Shown here in pieces: positions 9,900-43,993 of a stretch of 44,758 nt of DNA (position 1 is the first letter of the stretch; each line of letters begins with the position of its first letter). Made by a program: the position numbers and the translations under genes. The notes beneath the pieces were generated by a model. It was not told the origin of the DNA, ran no database searches, and worked only from the letters and a program-made list of their open reading frames with translations. Source of the stretch: Parcubacteria group bacterium M6-OD1-3 (lineage in GTDB: Bacteria; Patescibacteriota; Minisyncoccia; Moranbacterales; UBA9337); assembly GCA_003056165.1 (NCBI GenBank), contig LSNR01000001.1, forward strand, positions 1-44,758, read 5' to 3'.

Positions 9900-9924
9900 C
9901 TTTGTGAAGACTGTCCTCGCGAAG
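9900..9924. repeat. Degenerate REP-like palindrome of the GAGGAC-n-GTCCTC family
   Basis: 25 bp with two 12-nt arms around a central T. Right arm GTCCTCGCGAAG matches the 22-kb palindromes closely, and the three arm mismatches would be G-U compatible in RNA. It looks like a solitary, decayed copy of the element found at the RAYT gene. Confidence 0.65.
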
Positions 9925-21143: not shown

Positions 21144-21312
21144 AAAATCATTTTCATAATTAAACTATATTCCGTAAACACTTATTCTTTAAATACTAAA
21201 AAAATTAATTTATGAATAATCTAAAAATCATTATTGTCAGCTTTTCTGAACTGAATTTTTATAAACATTTCTCGTTACACAATTTCATTCTACCACCTTT
21301 TGAGAAATAAAA

Positions 21313-21345
21313 AAGGGGATTTTAGGCGGTTGCCCAAAATCCCTT
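21313..21345 (-). terminator. Strong rho-independent terminator of the small-ORF cassette
   Basis: A G/C-rich stem (AAGGGATTTT with AAAATCCCCTT, plus GGGC/GCC near a short loop) is followed on the minus strand by CTTTTTTATT. It sits 12 bp after the stop at 21358. It is the clearest terminator in the window. Confidence 0.9.
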
Positions 21346-21357
21346 CAACACACTTTC

Positions 21358-21573
21358 TCAGCATTTCAATGCCTGCTCTACTTGAGCAAAAATGCTCGAA
21401 ATTTCCTGATCGCATTCTAAGACAGTATTGCCAGCAAAACTTGCCCGACATCCCATTTGTTGCCAAGATTTCCGGCAAACATTACATTCACGCAATGTAG
21501 TTAAATCCTCTCCCTCTGTACAAGCTACACTGTCACCCGTACTTGCACATAAAAATAAGTTGATTATCATCAT
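21358..21573 (-). CDS. Small Cys-rich protein (71 aa)
   Basis: This is the third gene of a three-gene cassette. The start at 21573 (MMIINLFLCAST) is chosen because AAAGGGAG lies 4-11 bp upstream; a longer frame to 21642 would run through the preceding gene. The protein has a short hydrophobic start and then seven Cys, including ECNVCRKSW, GCRASF, LECDQ and a C-terminal LKC. The Cys spacing suggests metal binding or disulfides, but no family is recognised. Codons are visibly more G/C-rich than in neighbours. Stop, terminator and SD-led start make it a real gene despite its size. Confidence 0.65.
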   Translation of the reverse strand: MMIINLFLCASTGDSVACTEGEDLTTLRECNVCRKSWQQMGCRASFAGNTVLECDQEISSIFAQVEQALKC

Positions 21574-21586
21574 TGTCTCCCTTTCA

Positions 21587-21715
21587 TTATTTTGATCTTT
21601 TTTTCCTCCAATTAAATTCCTTTGCATAATCTCTGTTCCCAAGATTGGTCGTAGGAATAAAATTTGCCAATTTTCTGCGAATAAATCGCATAAAGAAAAT
21701 AATATACTTCATCAT
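21587..21715 (-). CDS. Small basic protein (42 aa)
   Basis: This frame starts MMKYIIFFMRFIRRK and ends FNWRKKRSK. It has a short hydrophobic N-terminus and then a strongly basic C-terminus. A strong SD, GGAGGGG, is 3-4 bp before the ATG at 21713-21715. The start overlaps the stop of the upstream 111-aa gene (ATGA-type overlap), and the stop lies 13 bp before the next gene's start, so translation is coupled through the cassette. No family is recognised. Confidence 0.6.
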   Translation of the reverse strand: MMKYIIFFMRFIRRKLANFIPTTNLGNRDYAKEFNWRKKRSK

Positions 21716-22047
21716 TTCCCCTCCAAATATTTAATGATTTTCATTGTTAACAGAAATGATTTTTCAAAACGAGAAACATCATTATCTAAAGAGCACAATT
21801 TGTCTGATGCATTATGCCCCTTTCTTACAACACTTCGCAATATTTCAGTTTTCAAGCCCACATAATATTGCACTCGGTATTGCAAGATGCAAAAATAAAT
21901 CCATCCTCCTATCAAAATCAAACCAATTAAAACTATTATCTCGATACATGGCTTGAATTGAAGCGTAGCCAATGCAAGTAAGAGGTTTAATGCTGTGTAG
22001 CCCGCAATTATCTGTAATAGCCTAAAATTAACTTTGCTTTCTTTCAT
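21712..22047 (-). CDS. Small two-helix membrane protein (111 aa), first gene of the cassette
   Basis: This frame has two long hydrophobic helices (LLQIIAGYTALNLLLALATL and CIEIIVLIGLILIGGWIYFC) followed by a hydrophilic, mostly helical cytoplasmic-type tail (YYVGLKTEILRSVVRKGHN and ending KIIKYLEGK). A perfect SD, AGGAGG, lies 5 bp before the ATG at 22047. The stop TGA overlaps the next start. The family is not recognised. The membrane-helix plus tail layout and company of tiny basic and Cys-rich genes recall secreted-peptide or phage-like cassettes, but that is only a guess. Confidence 0.7.
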   Translation of the reverse strand: MKESKVNFRLLQIIAGYTALNLLLALATLQFKPCIEIIVLIGLILIGGWIYFCILQYRVQYYVGLKTEILRSVVRKGHNASDKLCSLDNDVSRFEKSFLLTMKIIKYLEGK

Positions 22048-22144
22048 CTTTTCCTCCTTTTATAATATTGTCAAAAAAACTTCTTGAACTTCCCAAACTT
22101 CAAACTAACATCTTAACCAACCCCTGTCAATTACTCATCAAACT

Positions 22145-22165
22145 TTGCGAGGACAGTCCTCGCAA
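22145..22165. repeat. REP-like palindrome R1, 3' side of the RAYT gene
   Basis: A 21-bp perfect palindrome: TTGCGAGGAC, a central A, GTCCTCGCAA. It ends one base before the RAYT stop codon at 22167. Confidence 0.85.
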
Positions 22166-22166
22166 T

Positions 22167-22862
22167 CTATTCCCAATCCTCTTTTCTAAATTCGTTTCTT
22201 TGTTCTTTTATTTCCATCACCCTATTTTTTGCTCGATTATAATAATTACTATCAATGTCAATCATATTTTTGCCCTTACAAATATTCATCGATCTGCTAC
22301 TTTGAGAGGACAGTCCTCGCAAAGTAGATTTAAAATTGTTGATATATTCGATTATACTTGAACGAATTATTTTATTTTTATTTATATCTAGGTTATGAAT
22401 CAAAAAATTTAAATTTACATACATAGATAAATTATCTAAATCAACCTGACTATCAACAATGCGTGACTTAAAAACTCCTTGAAATAAAGAACCAGAATAT
22501 TTGTGTCGCTCATTGAAATACATTACATATCCAGTTAAAAGTTTTTTCATAAAAATAGATATTCCATCATTATGCACTTGTTTTAAAATTAGATGGAAAT
22601 GATTGGGATTAAGACAATAAGCTATTATTTCAACCAAACAATTCCCATTTACTTCAACTTCTATTTTATTTCTAATTGCATTATTACTATTGTTTTTAAA
22701 TTGTTTAAAAAAATGAACTGGCTCTGTTGTATTAAATTCTTTTAATCCCATCAAAAAACGCCACGAGTCCAGCGTGTCTTCGAAAATAACCCTTTTATTA
22801 TTACCTCTATTATAGATATGATATATTTCACCATTTACAAGAGGCTCTCTTCTTTTAGACAT
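22167..22862 (-). CDS. REP-associated tyrosine transposase (RAYT, Y1 family)
   Basis: This single-strand DNA transposase-like protein of about 231 residues is related to IS200/IS605 TnpA. Motifs: VNGEIYHIYNRGNNKRVIF (YHIYnRGnn), the HUH pair in NPNHFHLILKQ and TGYVMYFNERHKYSGSLFQ with the catalytic Tyr, then GVFKSRIV and a short HNL segment. The start at 22862 (MSKRREPLVNG) is chosen because the longer frame to 22913 begins inside a REP palindrome. One REP palindrome (22297-22327) lies inside the gene near its 3' end and encodes RGLSSQSS. RAYTs are domesticated enzymes that spread or maintain REP sequences. The gene is flanked by REPs R1 and R3. Confidence 0.88.
   Translation of the reverse strand: MSKRREPLVNGEIYHIYNRGNNKRVIFEDTLDSWRFLMGLKEFNTTEPVHFFKQFKNNSNNAIRNKIEVEVNGNCLVEIIAYCLNPNHFHLILKQVHNDGISIFMKKLLTGYVMYFNERHKYSGSLFQGVFKSRIVDSQVDLDNLSMYVNLNFLIHNLDINKNKIIRSSIIEYINNFKSTLRGLSSQSSRSMNICKGKNMIDIDSNYYNRAKNRVMEIKEQRNEFRKEDWE
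22297..22327. repeat. REP-like palindrome R2 inside the RAYT coding sequence
   Basis: 31 bp with 15-nt arms (CTACTTTG... / ...CAAAGTAG), a central A and one mismatch. The GAGGAC-A-GTCCTC core equals R1 and R3. It is translated in frame as part of the RAYT C-terminus. Confidence 0.85.
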
Positions 22863-29156: not shown

Positions 29157-30884
29157 ATGGAAAACATTAATCTTCATCAAAATTTTATAATCGAATCTTT
29201 AAAGTTGGACTTACCTAATTCTAGCAAATTTTTGAATTTTAAGAAACGCTTTTGTAGCCAAAATAAAATACCCCAACCGACTAATGCCGACCTGCGTGAG
29301 CTTTATGAAAAAATGATTACTAAAAGAAAAATTAAACGCAATCCTCAACTAGAAAAAGTAATGCTTTCTCGTGCTATTCGCACTCAATCAGGTGTTGCTG
29401 TTGTTGCTGTATTAACCAAGCCATCATCTTGCCCTGGTAAATGCATTTTTTGTCCGACTGAAAAAGATATGCCCAAAAGTTATTTATCTAATGAACCTGC
29501 TGTAATGCGTGCAATTATGAATAAATTCAACCCTTATCGTCAAGTTCAAGGTCGATTAAAGGCATTGGAACTAAATGGACACTCAACCGAAAAAATTGAG
29601 TTGATTGTAATGGGCGGAACATTTTCATATTTTCCAAGACGCTATCAGCAATGGTTTATTAAGGAATGCTTTCGTGCTTGCAATGACTATCCTAAAAAAC
29701 AAAAAATAAATATTAAAAAAGATGCAGATTTATTGTATCATGAGCAAAAACGAAATGAACTAATAAAACATCGCGTTGTTGGGTTAACATTAGAAACTCG
29801 CCCTGATTATATTGACGATAAAGAAATTTTAAATTTTCGTCAACTTGGATGCACCCGCGTAGAAATTGGCGTGCAATCAATTTTTGATGATATTCTAAAA
29901 TTAAATAATCGCGGACATTTAATATCTGAAACTATTCGTGCTACAAAATTATTAAAAAATGCCGGATTTAAAATTAACTATCATATGATGCCCGGACTTT
30001 ATGGAAGCTCACCCGCTAAAGACTTCAAAATGTTCAAAGAATTATTTTCCAATTCTGATTTTCAGCCAGATATGTTAAAAATTTATCCAACAATAGTTAT
30101 TAAAAATTCAAAATTATACAAATTATGGAAAAATGGAGAATATAAAGCGATGACTGACAAGCAATTTGAAAAATTAATTATCAAAATCAAAAATGAAGTA
30201 ATTCCTCCCTATACTCGTATTCAAAGATTAGTGCGAGATGTTCCACTTCCTTCTATCGAAGCGGGACCAAAAATTTCTAATCTCCGCCAACTAGTTGCTG
30301 AAAAAGCTAGTTGCAAATGCATTCGCTGTCGGGAAATAAAAGGTGAATATAACCAAGTGAAGCAACGAGGAGGTCGCTCCTCAAGGAGGAGCGAGGCAAA
30401 GCCGAGCGACGGAAGAGGTGCGACCTCGTTGTTGCGATATAATACACCTACGCAAAAACAAATTACTCAAAAAAACAACGCTTTATCCCTCAACCGCATC
30501 AACTACCCTGCTTCCGATGGCAAGGAAATTTTTTTACAATTTATTGATAATAAAAATAGACTTTATGCACTACTCCGCTTAAGAATAAATCCTAAAAAAC
30601 TAAAAAATTCTAACCTAAAAATTTATCCAGCAATTATTCGCGAACTTCATACCTACGGCAAACTCGCGCCCGTCGGCAAGCAAGATGTAAAATCTCCGCA
30701 ACATATTGGCTTTGGAAAAAAACTTATTAAAGAAGCAGAAAAAATCTCCAGAGAAGAATTAACTAAACTTGATATCCCTAAAAACCAACAATCTCTTGCT
30801 ATCATCTCCGGCATCGGCGTCCGCGCTTACTATCGCAAACTTGGTTATCGATTGCAAGGGACTTATATGGTGAAGAGGATTTAA
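29157..30884 (+). CDS. elp3: Elp3-family radical SAM / GNAT tRNA-uridine modification protein with an in-frame GC-rich insert
   Basis: This 575-residue Elp3-like enzyme would install cm5 or related groups on U34 of tRNA. It has a radical SAM domain (about 80-370; cluster motif SCPGKCIFCPTEKDMPKSYL, then MGGTFSYFPRRYQ, GLTLETRPDYI, TRVEIGVQSIFDDIL, KINYHMMPGLYGS) and a GNAT acetyltransferase domain (about 390-575; PASDGKEIFLQF, IRELHTYGKLAPVG, QHIGFGKKLIKEAEKISRE, AYYRKLGYRLQGTYMVKRI). Between them an Arg/Ser-rich stretch of about 25 residues is written by a GC-rich palindromic element (30362-30435). Start codons of this gene and the Trm9-like gene are 5 bp apart, so each promoter must lie in the other gene. 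Full-length and likely functional. Confidence 0.9.
   Translation: MENINLHQNFIIESLKLDLPNSSKFLNFKKRFCSQNKIPQPTNADLRELYEKMITKRKIKRNPQLEKVMLSRAIRTQSGVAVVAVLTKPSSCPGKCIFCPTEKDMPKSYLSNEPAVMRAIMNKFNPYRQVQGRLKALELNGHSTEKIELIVMGGTFSYFPRRYQQWFIKECFRACNDYPKKQKINIKKDADLLYHEQKRNELIKHRVVGLTLETRPDYIDDKEILNFRQLGCTRVEIGVQSIFDDILKLNNRGHLISETIRATKLLKNAGFKINYHMMPGLYGSSPAKDFKMFKELFSNSDFQPDMLKIYPTIVIKNSKLYKLWKNGEYKAMTDKQFEKLIIKIKNEVIPPYTRIQRLVRDVPLPSIEAGPKISNLRQLVAEKASCKCIRCREIKGEYNQVKQRGGRSSRRSEAKPSDGRGATSLLRYNTPTQKQITQKNNALSLNRINYPASDGKEIFLQFIDNKNRLYALLRLRINPKKLKNSNLKIYPAIIRELHTYGKLAPVGKQDVKSPQHIGFGKKLIKEAEKISREELTKLDIPKNQQSLAIISGIGVRAYYRKLGYRLQGTYMVKRI
30362..30435. repeat. GC-rich branched palindromic insert inside elp3
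   Basis: About 74 bp far richer in G/C than the surrounding gene. Outer arms 30362-30377 and 30420-30435 pair with two mismatches (GAGGTCGC with GCGACCTC is exact). Inside are a 7-bp hairpin (GCTCCTC, AAG, GAGGAGC) and a GGC/GCC hairpin around AAA. It is translated in frame. The design resembles palindromic inserts known in Rickettsia proteins. Confidence 0.75.
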
Positions 30885-41137: not shown

Positions 41138-43135
41138 TTAGTTTATTTGAAAATCTAGAGGAATTGAAATATCTGAATTGCCTTCTGTATTACTATTGTC
41201 ATTATTATTCGAGAAAATATAACATTCTTCCAATAAGAGGAGACTTCCGTTTAGTAGAGGATTATACTCTTCTCTGTCATCTATCCCGTAAGCATAGATG
41301 GTATGTTGATGTCCATCTTTGAGAATTTCGGGAACTCCAAAAACAAAACCGTGATTTTTATCGTTAAACGGTAAGTCCGGTCTTATTTGATTAGCGGTTG
41401 TTTTGCCGATAAAAGTTCCTATCCCCGCTTCTCCGTCCGCATAGAAATGAACATCTATGGGAGAAGTGGTGTTAGGATCTCTTACCCAACCTCTGATTTG
41501 ATTGCAACTTACTTCATCCAACCAACCTTCGGGGAATTGATTGGGGACTTGATAATCTCTATTCCAACACAAATAGTTATCATCCCAGGTATCTGGGTCG
41601 GATGTTTCTAGCCATTGGACGCAATTTTTGTTGGAAATTGGTCCGGCTGAACTCCAGTAAAAGTTAAGGTTGCTTTCGTTTGTTACACAAAGGTAGTTAT
41701 CGTTCCAAGTATGATTGCTTGGTTCGGCTCCTTCGGTAATTTGAGTACAACGCATTCCTTGAATTGGACCAGCACTACTCCAAGAAATTCCTTCATATTC
41801 TTTAGAGCAAAAGTAATTATCATCCCAAGTATCAGGATCAGCTGTCTCCAAGATTTGGATGCATTCCATTTCGCTTATTGGTCCGGATGAATTCCAAGCA
41901 AATTCAGGGGTTGGTTGAGATTGAGGATTGTTGATGAAAAAACTCTCCACACGAGAATTGTTATTGTTTTCTGATTGTTCATTGACTTCATTGTCAGAGT
42001 CAACATTGGCTTTGCAATCAAGGATTTCTCCGGGGTAGTTGGGAACTGTGTAGTTTAGTGTTTCTAAAGAAGTATTATTATCCGTTACTAAATTATCTAC
42101 ATCAAATTCCATTACATCTTCTGATCCGGGGATTTCCTGCCAATCAGTAATTCCTCTTACTCTACAAAAGACTTCTCCATCTATTGATTGAGAGTTGGAG
42201 TTGAATAAATCACTTTCTTCTACATCACGATTATTGACTTGAGCTTCAAGTCTCATCGTAATTACTTGATTGGGATTGACATTTTCTGTTGGACAATTAT
42301 CGCAATTTGCTGAGATTTCATGTCCATCTTGATGAAGAATGTCAAAGTCTGGAGTGATGTCAGGTTTTGAACCAGGTTCTGAATCAGCAGAACCGCCACC
42401 CATACCAGCAAAAGCTTCTGAAACAACAGCAATCTTATTAGGATTATATGTGCTAACACAGTTAGTACAACGATAATCGTTCCAAACCTTATTGGCAATC
42501 CAATTCCATTCTTCGTGAGTTTGATTATCGCAGATGTTATCCATTTCATAACAATTGAGATAATGAAGACTATCTATTCCTTCTTCGTAGGCGAGGATGT
42601 GGATGAAGCCAGAAGGATTATCTGAAGGATAGATCCATTTTTCACTGTATTCGTGATTTCCGTTGCCGTTGTATTGCTTAATGAACACCTTATTCCAAGA
42701 TGTACTTGAAGAATAATCTACCGTTACTACTTCGGCGACATGACCGTAACTTCCCATATTTTCCCAGTAAACAATATCTCCTGGGATTGGAAAATTATCC
42801 ACCGTGATACCTGCTCGTAAAGCTGCGTCATTCCAGTCTTTTCCATGATGCCAAGCCTGTCCGCTTGGTTGACGATAGGAATTATTAAAACTGATTCCGT
42901 AATCGTTTAAGACATACGCTGCGAATGAGGTACAGTTGCATTGGGCGAATGCCCATTTGTCAGACCAATACCATGTATTAGGATCATATGGATCTGGTTT
43001 TTGCAATATTGAATAATGCCCTTCGCTCGTCAAGTCTCCACCATCAGGACAAACACTTTCATATGGATAACTTGCATACGCATTTCCAAAACACATACAC
43101 ACCATAGCCAACATTACTACAATTTTTCTCAACAT
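41138..43135 (-). CDS. Secreted CHAP-domain protein with CARDB-like and repeat domains
   Basis: This 665-residue exported protein has a signal peptide (MLRKIVVMLAMVCMCFGNAYA). A CHAP domain (about 25-190) carries catalytic Cys in QCNCTSFAAYV, His in GSYGHVAEVV and the PGDIVYWEN motif, suggesting amidase/endopeptidase activity on peptidoglycan. Next come a Cys-rich segment (~200-240), a CARDB-like beta domain (~285-400), three repeats of about 33 residues (WSSAGPI...C.Q..E...P..WDDNYLC; ~410-515) and a C-terminal domain with CNQIRGWVRDPN, HGFVFGVPE and LKDGHQHTIYAYGIDD that occurs in other secreted bacterial proteins. SD AGGAG sits 7 bp before the start. Codons are less A/T-rich than in housekeeping genes. 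Probably a secreted wall hydrolase or adhesin. Confidence 0.8.
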   Translation of the reverse strand: MLRKIVVMLAMVCMCFGNAYASYPYESVCPDGGDLTSEGHYSILQKPDPYDPNTWYWSDKWAFAQCNCTSFAAYVLNDYGISFNNSYRQPSGQAWHHGKDWNDAALRAGITVDNFPIPGDIVYWENMGSYGHVAEVVTVDYSSSTSWNKVFIKQYNGNGNHEYSEKWIYPSDNPSGFIHILAYEEGIDSLHYLNCYEMDNICDNQTHEEWNWIANKVWNDYRCTNCVSTYNPNKIAVVSEAFAGMGGGSADSEPGSKPDITPDFDILHQDGHEISANCDNCPTENVNPNQVITMRLEAQVNNRDVEESDLFNSNSQSIDGEVFCRVRGITDWQEIPGSEDVMEFDVDNLVTDNNTSLETLNYTVPNYPGEILDCKANVDSDNEVNEQSENNNNSRVESFFINNPQSQPTPEFAWNSSGPISEMECIQILETADPDTWDDNYFCSKEYEGISWSSAGPIQGMRCTQITEGAEPSNHTWNDNYLCVTNESNLNFYWSSAGPISNKNCVQWLETSDPDTWDDNYLCWNRDYQVPNQFPEGWLDEVSCNQIRGWVRDPNTTSPIDVHFYADGEAGIGTFIGKTTANQIRPDLPFNDKNHGFVFGVPEILKDGHQHTIYAYGIDDREEYNPLLNGSLLLLEECYIFSNNNDNSNTEGNSDISIPLDFQIN

Positions 43136-43906: not shown

Positions 43907-43993
43907 TCAAGTAACATGCAGAAAATAACTTGCATACGCATTTCCGAAACACATACACGCCATAACCAACATTAGTACAATTTTTCTCAACAT
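43907..43993 (-). pseudogene. Signal-peptide relic: duplicated 5' end of the CHAP gene
   Basis: From ATG 43993 the frame reads 28 residues (MLRKIVLMLVMACMCFGNAY then ASYFLHVT) and stops at TGA. The first 23 residues match the CHAP signal peptide with three changes, and the SD (AGGAG) and leader hairpin are copied as well. The catalytic domain is missing. It marks the 3' break of a tandem duplication. Confidence 0.85.

What the first reader, a model, noticed from the sequence alone, without database searches (positions are those of the whole stretch)
21306..22063. Compact three-gene cassette of tiny proteins with strong SD sites and its own terminator
Genes of 111, 42 and 71 residues overlap or nearly touch (stop TGA overlaps ATG). 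Each has a strong SD (AGGAGG, GGAGGGG, GGGAG) and the set ends in a clean terminator. Codons are more G/C-rich than neighbours. The products are a two-helix membrane protein, a basic peptide and a seven-Cys protein, none recognised. The set sits beside a REP/RAYT unit. It could be a foreign cassette, for example for a secreted peptide, or a phage-derived or toxin-like module.
Basis: partly seen in the sequence, partly recalled or inferred. Interest (0 to 1): 0.7.

Follow-up and report, generated by a model that had tools for sequence, protein, structure and literature searches.

The report
Foreign-looking three-gene expression unit
A small bacterial genome whose genes mostly lack the usual ribosome-binding signal carries a compact unit of three tiny unknown genes with strong signals and its own terminator, one of a scattered set of similar units that look imported.

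Summary
The cassette is real and lies on the minus strand: 111, 42 and 71 codons (22047 to 21358), each with a strong Shine-Dalgarno (SD) site, ending in a 12-bp-stem terminator. It stands out because neighbouring genes almost never have an SD, and its GC3 is 0.34, reached by only 2 of 5000 random host pieces. I found no convincing homologue of any of the three proteins in family libraries, phages, plasmids, viral contigs or up to 383 related genomes (P0002 in family libraries only), so the function stays open. The wider result is that the cassette is one of a scattered class. In this genome, genes with an AAGGAGG site are terminator-linked far more often than other genes (8 of 14 against 8 of 96) and have higher GC3. 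The same link holds in loci sampled from relatives (11 of 18 against 4 of 51). Sibling units include a ThyX, a 2-TM peptide and secreted proteins. The best reading is that these are horizontally acquired, self-contained transcription units that work like phage morons, though this one is not in a prophage. REP/RAYT linkage looks incidental. Secreted-peptide and toxin ideas gained no support.

The parts
21712..22047 (-). Gene 1, 111 aa: two hydrophobic segments (about residues 10-31 and 34-56), then a charged, helix-predicted tail
   Evidence: single-sequence model pLDDT 79.6, pTM 0.38
21587..21715 (-). Gene 2, 42 aa, net charge +10; its ATG overlaps the stop of gene 1
21358..21573 (-). Gene 3, 71 aa, seven Cys, net charge -4
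   Evidence: low-confidence model, pLDDT 52.7
22053..22059 (-). SD of gene 1, AAGGAGG
21718..21724 (-). SD of gene 2, GGAGGGG
21577..21581 (-). SD of gene 3, GGGAG
21316..21343 (-). Intrinsic terminator: 12-pair stem, 4-nt loop, T run
22102..22130 (-). Promoter-like pair TTGACA-17-TAGTTT, a form also seen before three other strong-SD genes in this genome
   Evidence: a lead only, because the pattern was derived from three of the four sites

Best explanation
The cassette is a horizontally acquired, self-contained transcription and translation unit that works like a phage moron but sits free in the chromosome: probable own promoter, strong SDs for each gene, translational coupling at the overlap, and its own terminator. 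Shown: SDs, overlap, terminator, deviant GC3, no match in relatives, and about a dozen units of similar design in the same genome. Inferred: that it is expressed, that it came by horizontal transfer, and that a donor using SD signals supplied the control elements. Because the host 16S rRNA gene keeps a full anti-SD (TGGATCACCTCC), such a unit could be translated at once wherever it lands. The products would be a small 2-TM membrane protein, a basic peptide and a Cys-rich protein made together. My guess at the role is a membrane-acting accessory function, such as exclusion of a phage or competitor; this guess is weak and not part of the stated confidence.
For: SD contrast with 37 host genes. 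Pooled GC3 0.339; 2 of 5000 host pieces reach it. Terminator. AAGGAGG-N4-9-ATG occurs 35 times in the genome, against 6 for the reversed control. In sampled stretches 8 of 14 AAGGAGG genes have a terminator within 130 nt, against 8 of 96 others (Fisher P 6e-5), and mean GC3 is 0.36 against 0.25 (P 7e-7). In relatives it is 11 of 18 against 4 of 51 (P 1.5e-5). TTGAC lies within 200 nt upstream of 11 of 15 unit leaders, against 17 of 76 host genes. An intact anti-SD lies at the 3' end of the 16S gene. A sibling unit carries ThyX with 6 viral relatives, the best 48% identical.
Against: No donor, homologue or empty site was found. No other genome of the same genus is held. Some strong-SD genes look native, such as a bS21-like gene at C5:8935 (named by eye) and a pilin-like protein with GC3 0.27, so a strong SD alone does not mean foreign. 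The host-gene comparison for TTGAC includes operon-internal genes. A full sigma-70 promoter score does not separate units from hosts (P 0.10). The shared TTGAC-17-TAGTYT form was not seen in the relatives' 29 loci. In relatives several strong-SD genes have GC3 at or below their neighbours.
Confidence: 0.6

Rival explanations
1. Native, highly or conditionally expressed genes: the lineage keeps SD sites and terminators for a small set of strongly expressed or stage-specific transcripts. The cassette belongs to this regulon and its GC3 reflects expression-linked codon choice.
For: All 34 genomes searched have more AAGGAGG-ATG sites than reversed controls. Genes that look native (bS21-like, HU-like, pilin-like; named by eye) have strong SDs. 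The 16S gene keeps its anti-SD.
Against: P0001 and P0003 are in none of the relatives at a convincing score. A sibling protein was found in only 1 genome besides its own among 285 class genomes. Native-looking SD genes have host GC3 (0.27), whereas most orphan units lie at 0.33-0.50.
Confidence: 0.22
2. Cargo of the neighbouring REP/RAYT element: the RAYT transposase captured or moved the cassette.
For: A REP palindrome lies 90 nt upstream of gene 1, and a RAYT gene is adjacent. One other strong-SD unit, on C1, also has a REP copy about 1.2 kb away.
Against: No REP lies downstream of the cassette. Only 5 palindromes of this type exist in the genome, fewer than the strong-SD units. The RAYT has no SD and host GC3.
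Confidence: 0.05
3. A bacteriocin, toxin-antitoxin or immunity module: the basic 42-aa peptide acts on membranes, the 2-TM protein is its immunity or transport partner, and the Cys-rich protein is a regulator.
For: Sizes and charges fit loosely. Pfam's cyclic bacteriocin model hits P0001 at E 0.14 only.
Against: That hit is far below the cut-off (12.9 against 27 bits). The helical moment of the best segment of P0002 is reached by 372 of 5000 shuffles of that segment and 1160 of 5000 of the whole peptide. No PADLOC, PHROG or NCBIfam match worth the name.
Confidence: 0.08

Closest known systems
Phage morons (accessory loci of prophages)
   Same: Compact unit of small unknown genes, own terminator, deviant composition, likely own promoter.
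   Different: Not in a prophage; lies between host-type genes (RAYT and a DNA alkylation repair enzyme); about a dozen such units are scattered singly through a 0.82-Mb genome.
Individually transferred genes reported in groundwater Patescibacteria (PMC12455944; abstract and passages seen)
   Same: Single-gene-scale horizontal acquisition in this kind of genome.
   Different: That paper names transfers by sequence match to donors and its method needs a donor in the data set; the passages seen do not describe an SD plus terminator signature.
Integron gene cassettes
   Same: Small mobile gene units.
   Different: Here the unit carries its own SDs, terminator and probable promoter, and there is no array. 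attC sites were not tested.

Membership tests
Phage moron | Own transcription terminator | tested here: met
Phage moron | Own promoter | tested here: inconclusive
   Promoter-like TTGACA-17-TAGTTT at 22130-22102; the full promoter score does not separate units from host genes
Phage moron | Nucleotide composition unlike its surroundings | tested here: met
   Pooled GC3 0.339; 2 of 5000 host pieces reach it
Phage moron | Lies within a phage or prophage | tested here: not met
   Nearest neighbours are alkylation repair, hydrolase, RAYT and RmuC genes; the larger window ORFs read as cellular by eye. Within the window, PHROGs was run only on the cassette proteins
Phage moron | Inserted between genes adjacent in relatives | tested here: inconclusive
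   rmuC neighbourhoods of six relatives share no neighbour of the cassette region with the window; no same-genus genome is held
REP/RAYT element | Unit bounded by REP palindromes on both sides | tested here: not met
   REPs only at 22147, 22304 and 22895, plus a 2-mismatch match at 9904
Bacteriocin or toxin-antitoxin | Match to a known family | tested here: not met
Integron gene cassette | attC recombination site | not tested
   No attC model was run

The most novel reading that the evidence does not exclude
In this order of reduced-genome bacteria a distinct population of self-contained gene units (promoter, AAGGAGG SD, short orphan genes, strong terminator, raised GC3) moves between genomes and inserts singly into chromosomes whose own genes mostly lack SDs. 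The recipient ribosome keeps its anti-SD partly for these, so imports are expressed on arrival.
Probability: 0.3. Interest if true: 0.7.

Novelty: new variant of a known kind. Interest (0 to 1): 0.5.

Why it matters
If genes with strong SDs and terminators in SD-poor reduced genomes are mostly recent imports, SD strength plus a terminator becomes a sequence-only marker for accessory genes in uncultured bacteria, including orphans that no homology search can place. It would also bear on why such genomes keep a full anti-SD when few of their own genes use it, a question that ribosome profiling could test.

Tried and rejected
Homology: P0003 in 93 genomes (its own included) gave 3 weak matches besides itself (E 0.007-0.064, two with stops inside). 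I rejected them as chance: the frames of L003 and L004 lie over larger ORFs, and L005 has two stops inside. P0001 in 383 class genomes gave 5 others at E <= 0.01, four of them inside frames of 304-408 codons, and in 128 order genomes 2 others, in frames of 355 and 240 codons; I rejected them as generic membrane similarity. Scans of genome and viral contigs, phages, plasmids and PDB sequences gave nothing usable. P0002 was searched only in the family libraries.

Synteny: rmuC was found in 7 of 9 family relatives but its neighbours are not conserved (six stretches), so no empty site could be shown. Structure: both models were made without an alignment; P0001 came out as near-continuous helix and P0003 at low confidence, so no fold search was run. 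Gene calls used a simple caller that picks some internal starts, so the main test uses the exact AAGGAGG rule instead. The ORF at C17:27787 was set aside because the 16S gene lies there. Amphipathic-peptide reading of P0002: not beyond shuffles. Shared families among strong-SD proteins: an all-against-all comparison of 73 proteins linked the cassette to none (best E 0.084).

Full report
Anatomy. The window is a whole contig (C10) of an unnamed 817,765-base genome in 26 contigs. On the minus strand three ORFs of 111, 42 and 71 codons run from 22047 to 21358. The stop of the first overlaps the start of the second. SDs AAGGAGG, GGAGGGG and GGGAG precede them. A 12-pair stem with a T run ends the set, and its region folds better than all 200 shuffles.

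Why it stands out. Of 37 larger window genes examined at their called starts, 2 have an exact SD of 5 nt or more and one more has AAAGGAGG abutting the start codon; most of the rest start in A/T-rich sequence without one. The pooled GC3 of the cassette is 0.339 (76 of 224 codons); random 224-codon pieces of 23 long host genes average 0.229 and 2 of 5000 reach the cassette's value. Against this, host-codon log-likelihood does not favour the annotated frames of the two shorter genes. That is expected if they are foreign, but also if they are not real genes; the argument for coding is the SD, overlap and terminator arrangement.

No relatives. Pfam, PHROGs, NCBIfam and PADLOC give no match of note for the three proteins. 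P0003 has no convincing match in 93 genomes, P0001 none in 383 class or 128 order genomes, and scans of genome contigs, viral contigs, phages, plasmids and PDB sequences gave nothing usable.

A class of units. The pattern AAGGAGG-N4-9-ATG occurs 35 times in the genome against 6 for its reversed control. I read the 30 loci given for these sites; some sites lie by chance inside larger genes. Several start genes with strong terminators: C16:9681 (418 aa), C17:5509 (380 aa, reductase-like), C17:30237 (223 aa), C17:49271 (215 aa, histidine phosphatase-like, below cut-off), C19:70664 (436 aa), C4:5045 (250 aa), C3:877 (124 aa), C2:14734 (128 aa). C1:8266-6999 is close in design: a 59-aa 2-TM peptide, a 13-codon frame and ThyX, each with a strong SD. 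Later stretches added C25:5113 (137 aa, terminator) and C23:28162 (139 aa, GC3 0.56, no terminator called). In sampled stretches 8 of 14 AAGGAGG genes have a terminator within 130 nt against 8 of 96 others (P 6e-5), and GC3 is 0.36 against 0.25 (P 7e-7). Of the six without one, P0001 and the 59-aa gene are first genes of multi-gene units, and ThyX lacks one by this rule only: one search finds a -22.5 kcal/mol hairpin after it.

Check in relatives. In 29 loci that the tool returned from the relatives, 18 usable AAGGAGG genes include 11 with a terminator, against 4 of 51 other genes (P 1.5e-5). All 34 genomes searched, the own one included, have more AAGGAGG-ATG sites than control. The GC3 excess is not uniform in relatives: several SD genes there are at or below host GC3, so composition supports foreignness in this genome better than across the order.

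Promoters. TTGAC lies within 200 nt of 11 of 15 unit leaders against 17 of 76 host genes (P 2.6e-4), but operon-internal host genes inflate this and a full promoter score gives P 0.10. TTGAC-N17-19-TAG[TC]NT occurs 5 times in 146,545 bases sampled; 4 lie upstream of strong-SD genes, including this cassette. I derived it from three of those four by eye, and it is absent from the relatives' loci and from the later stretches. It is a lead only.

Ribosome. The 16S gene on C17 ends in TGGATCACCTCC, so strong SDs can pair.

REP/RAYT. The neighbour at 22862-22167 is a Y1_Tnp protein above the Pfam cut-off, with REP palindromes at 22137, 22299 (inside its ORF) and 22888. None lies beyond the cassette, so the cassette is not a REP-bounded unit.

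Literature. Listings for Patescibacteria, Parcubacteria or CPR with Shine-Dalgarno, leaderless (81) and orphan or horizontally acquired genes (86) show no paper whose title or abstract start describes such units. PMC12455944 (abstract and passages) reports individually transferred genes and up to 13% of genome length by transfer. PMC11665869 (passages) says translation regulation is likely to be key in these bacteria and awaits study. PMC7067206 (passages) describes moron loci; the moron features used in the membership test are partly recalled. Only open-licence papers are searchable.

Verdict. Observation confirmed. Foreign, self-contained, moron-like expression unit: most likely (0.6). Function of the three proteins: open.

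Noticed in passing
22299-22325: A REP palindrome lies inside the RAYT reading frame and is translated there (LRGLSSQSS).
   Followed up: partly
29157-30884 (about 30340-30440): The Elp3-like gene (named by eye) has an in-frame stretch (RGGRSSRRSEAKPSDGRGATS) with an inverted repeat that looks like an inserted repeat element.
   Followed up: no
41138-43135 and 43907-43993: A large secreted protein and a short ORF nearby share a near-identical signal-peptide-like start, both after AGGAG: a possible truncated duplicate.
   Followed up: no
L040:3000-4267 (G000 C1:6999-8266): A sibling strong-SD unit with a 59-aa 2-TM peptide, a 13-codon frame and ThyX; the ThyX has relatives in 6 viral contigs, the best 48% identical.
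   Followed up: partly
L036:2276-2853: A family relative has 44-aa and 70-aa strong-SD ORFs in a row ending in a strong terminator, like the cassette in design.
   Followed up: no
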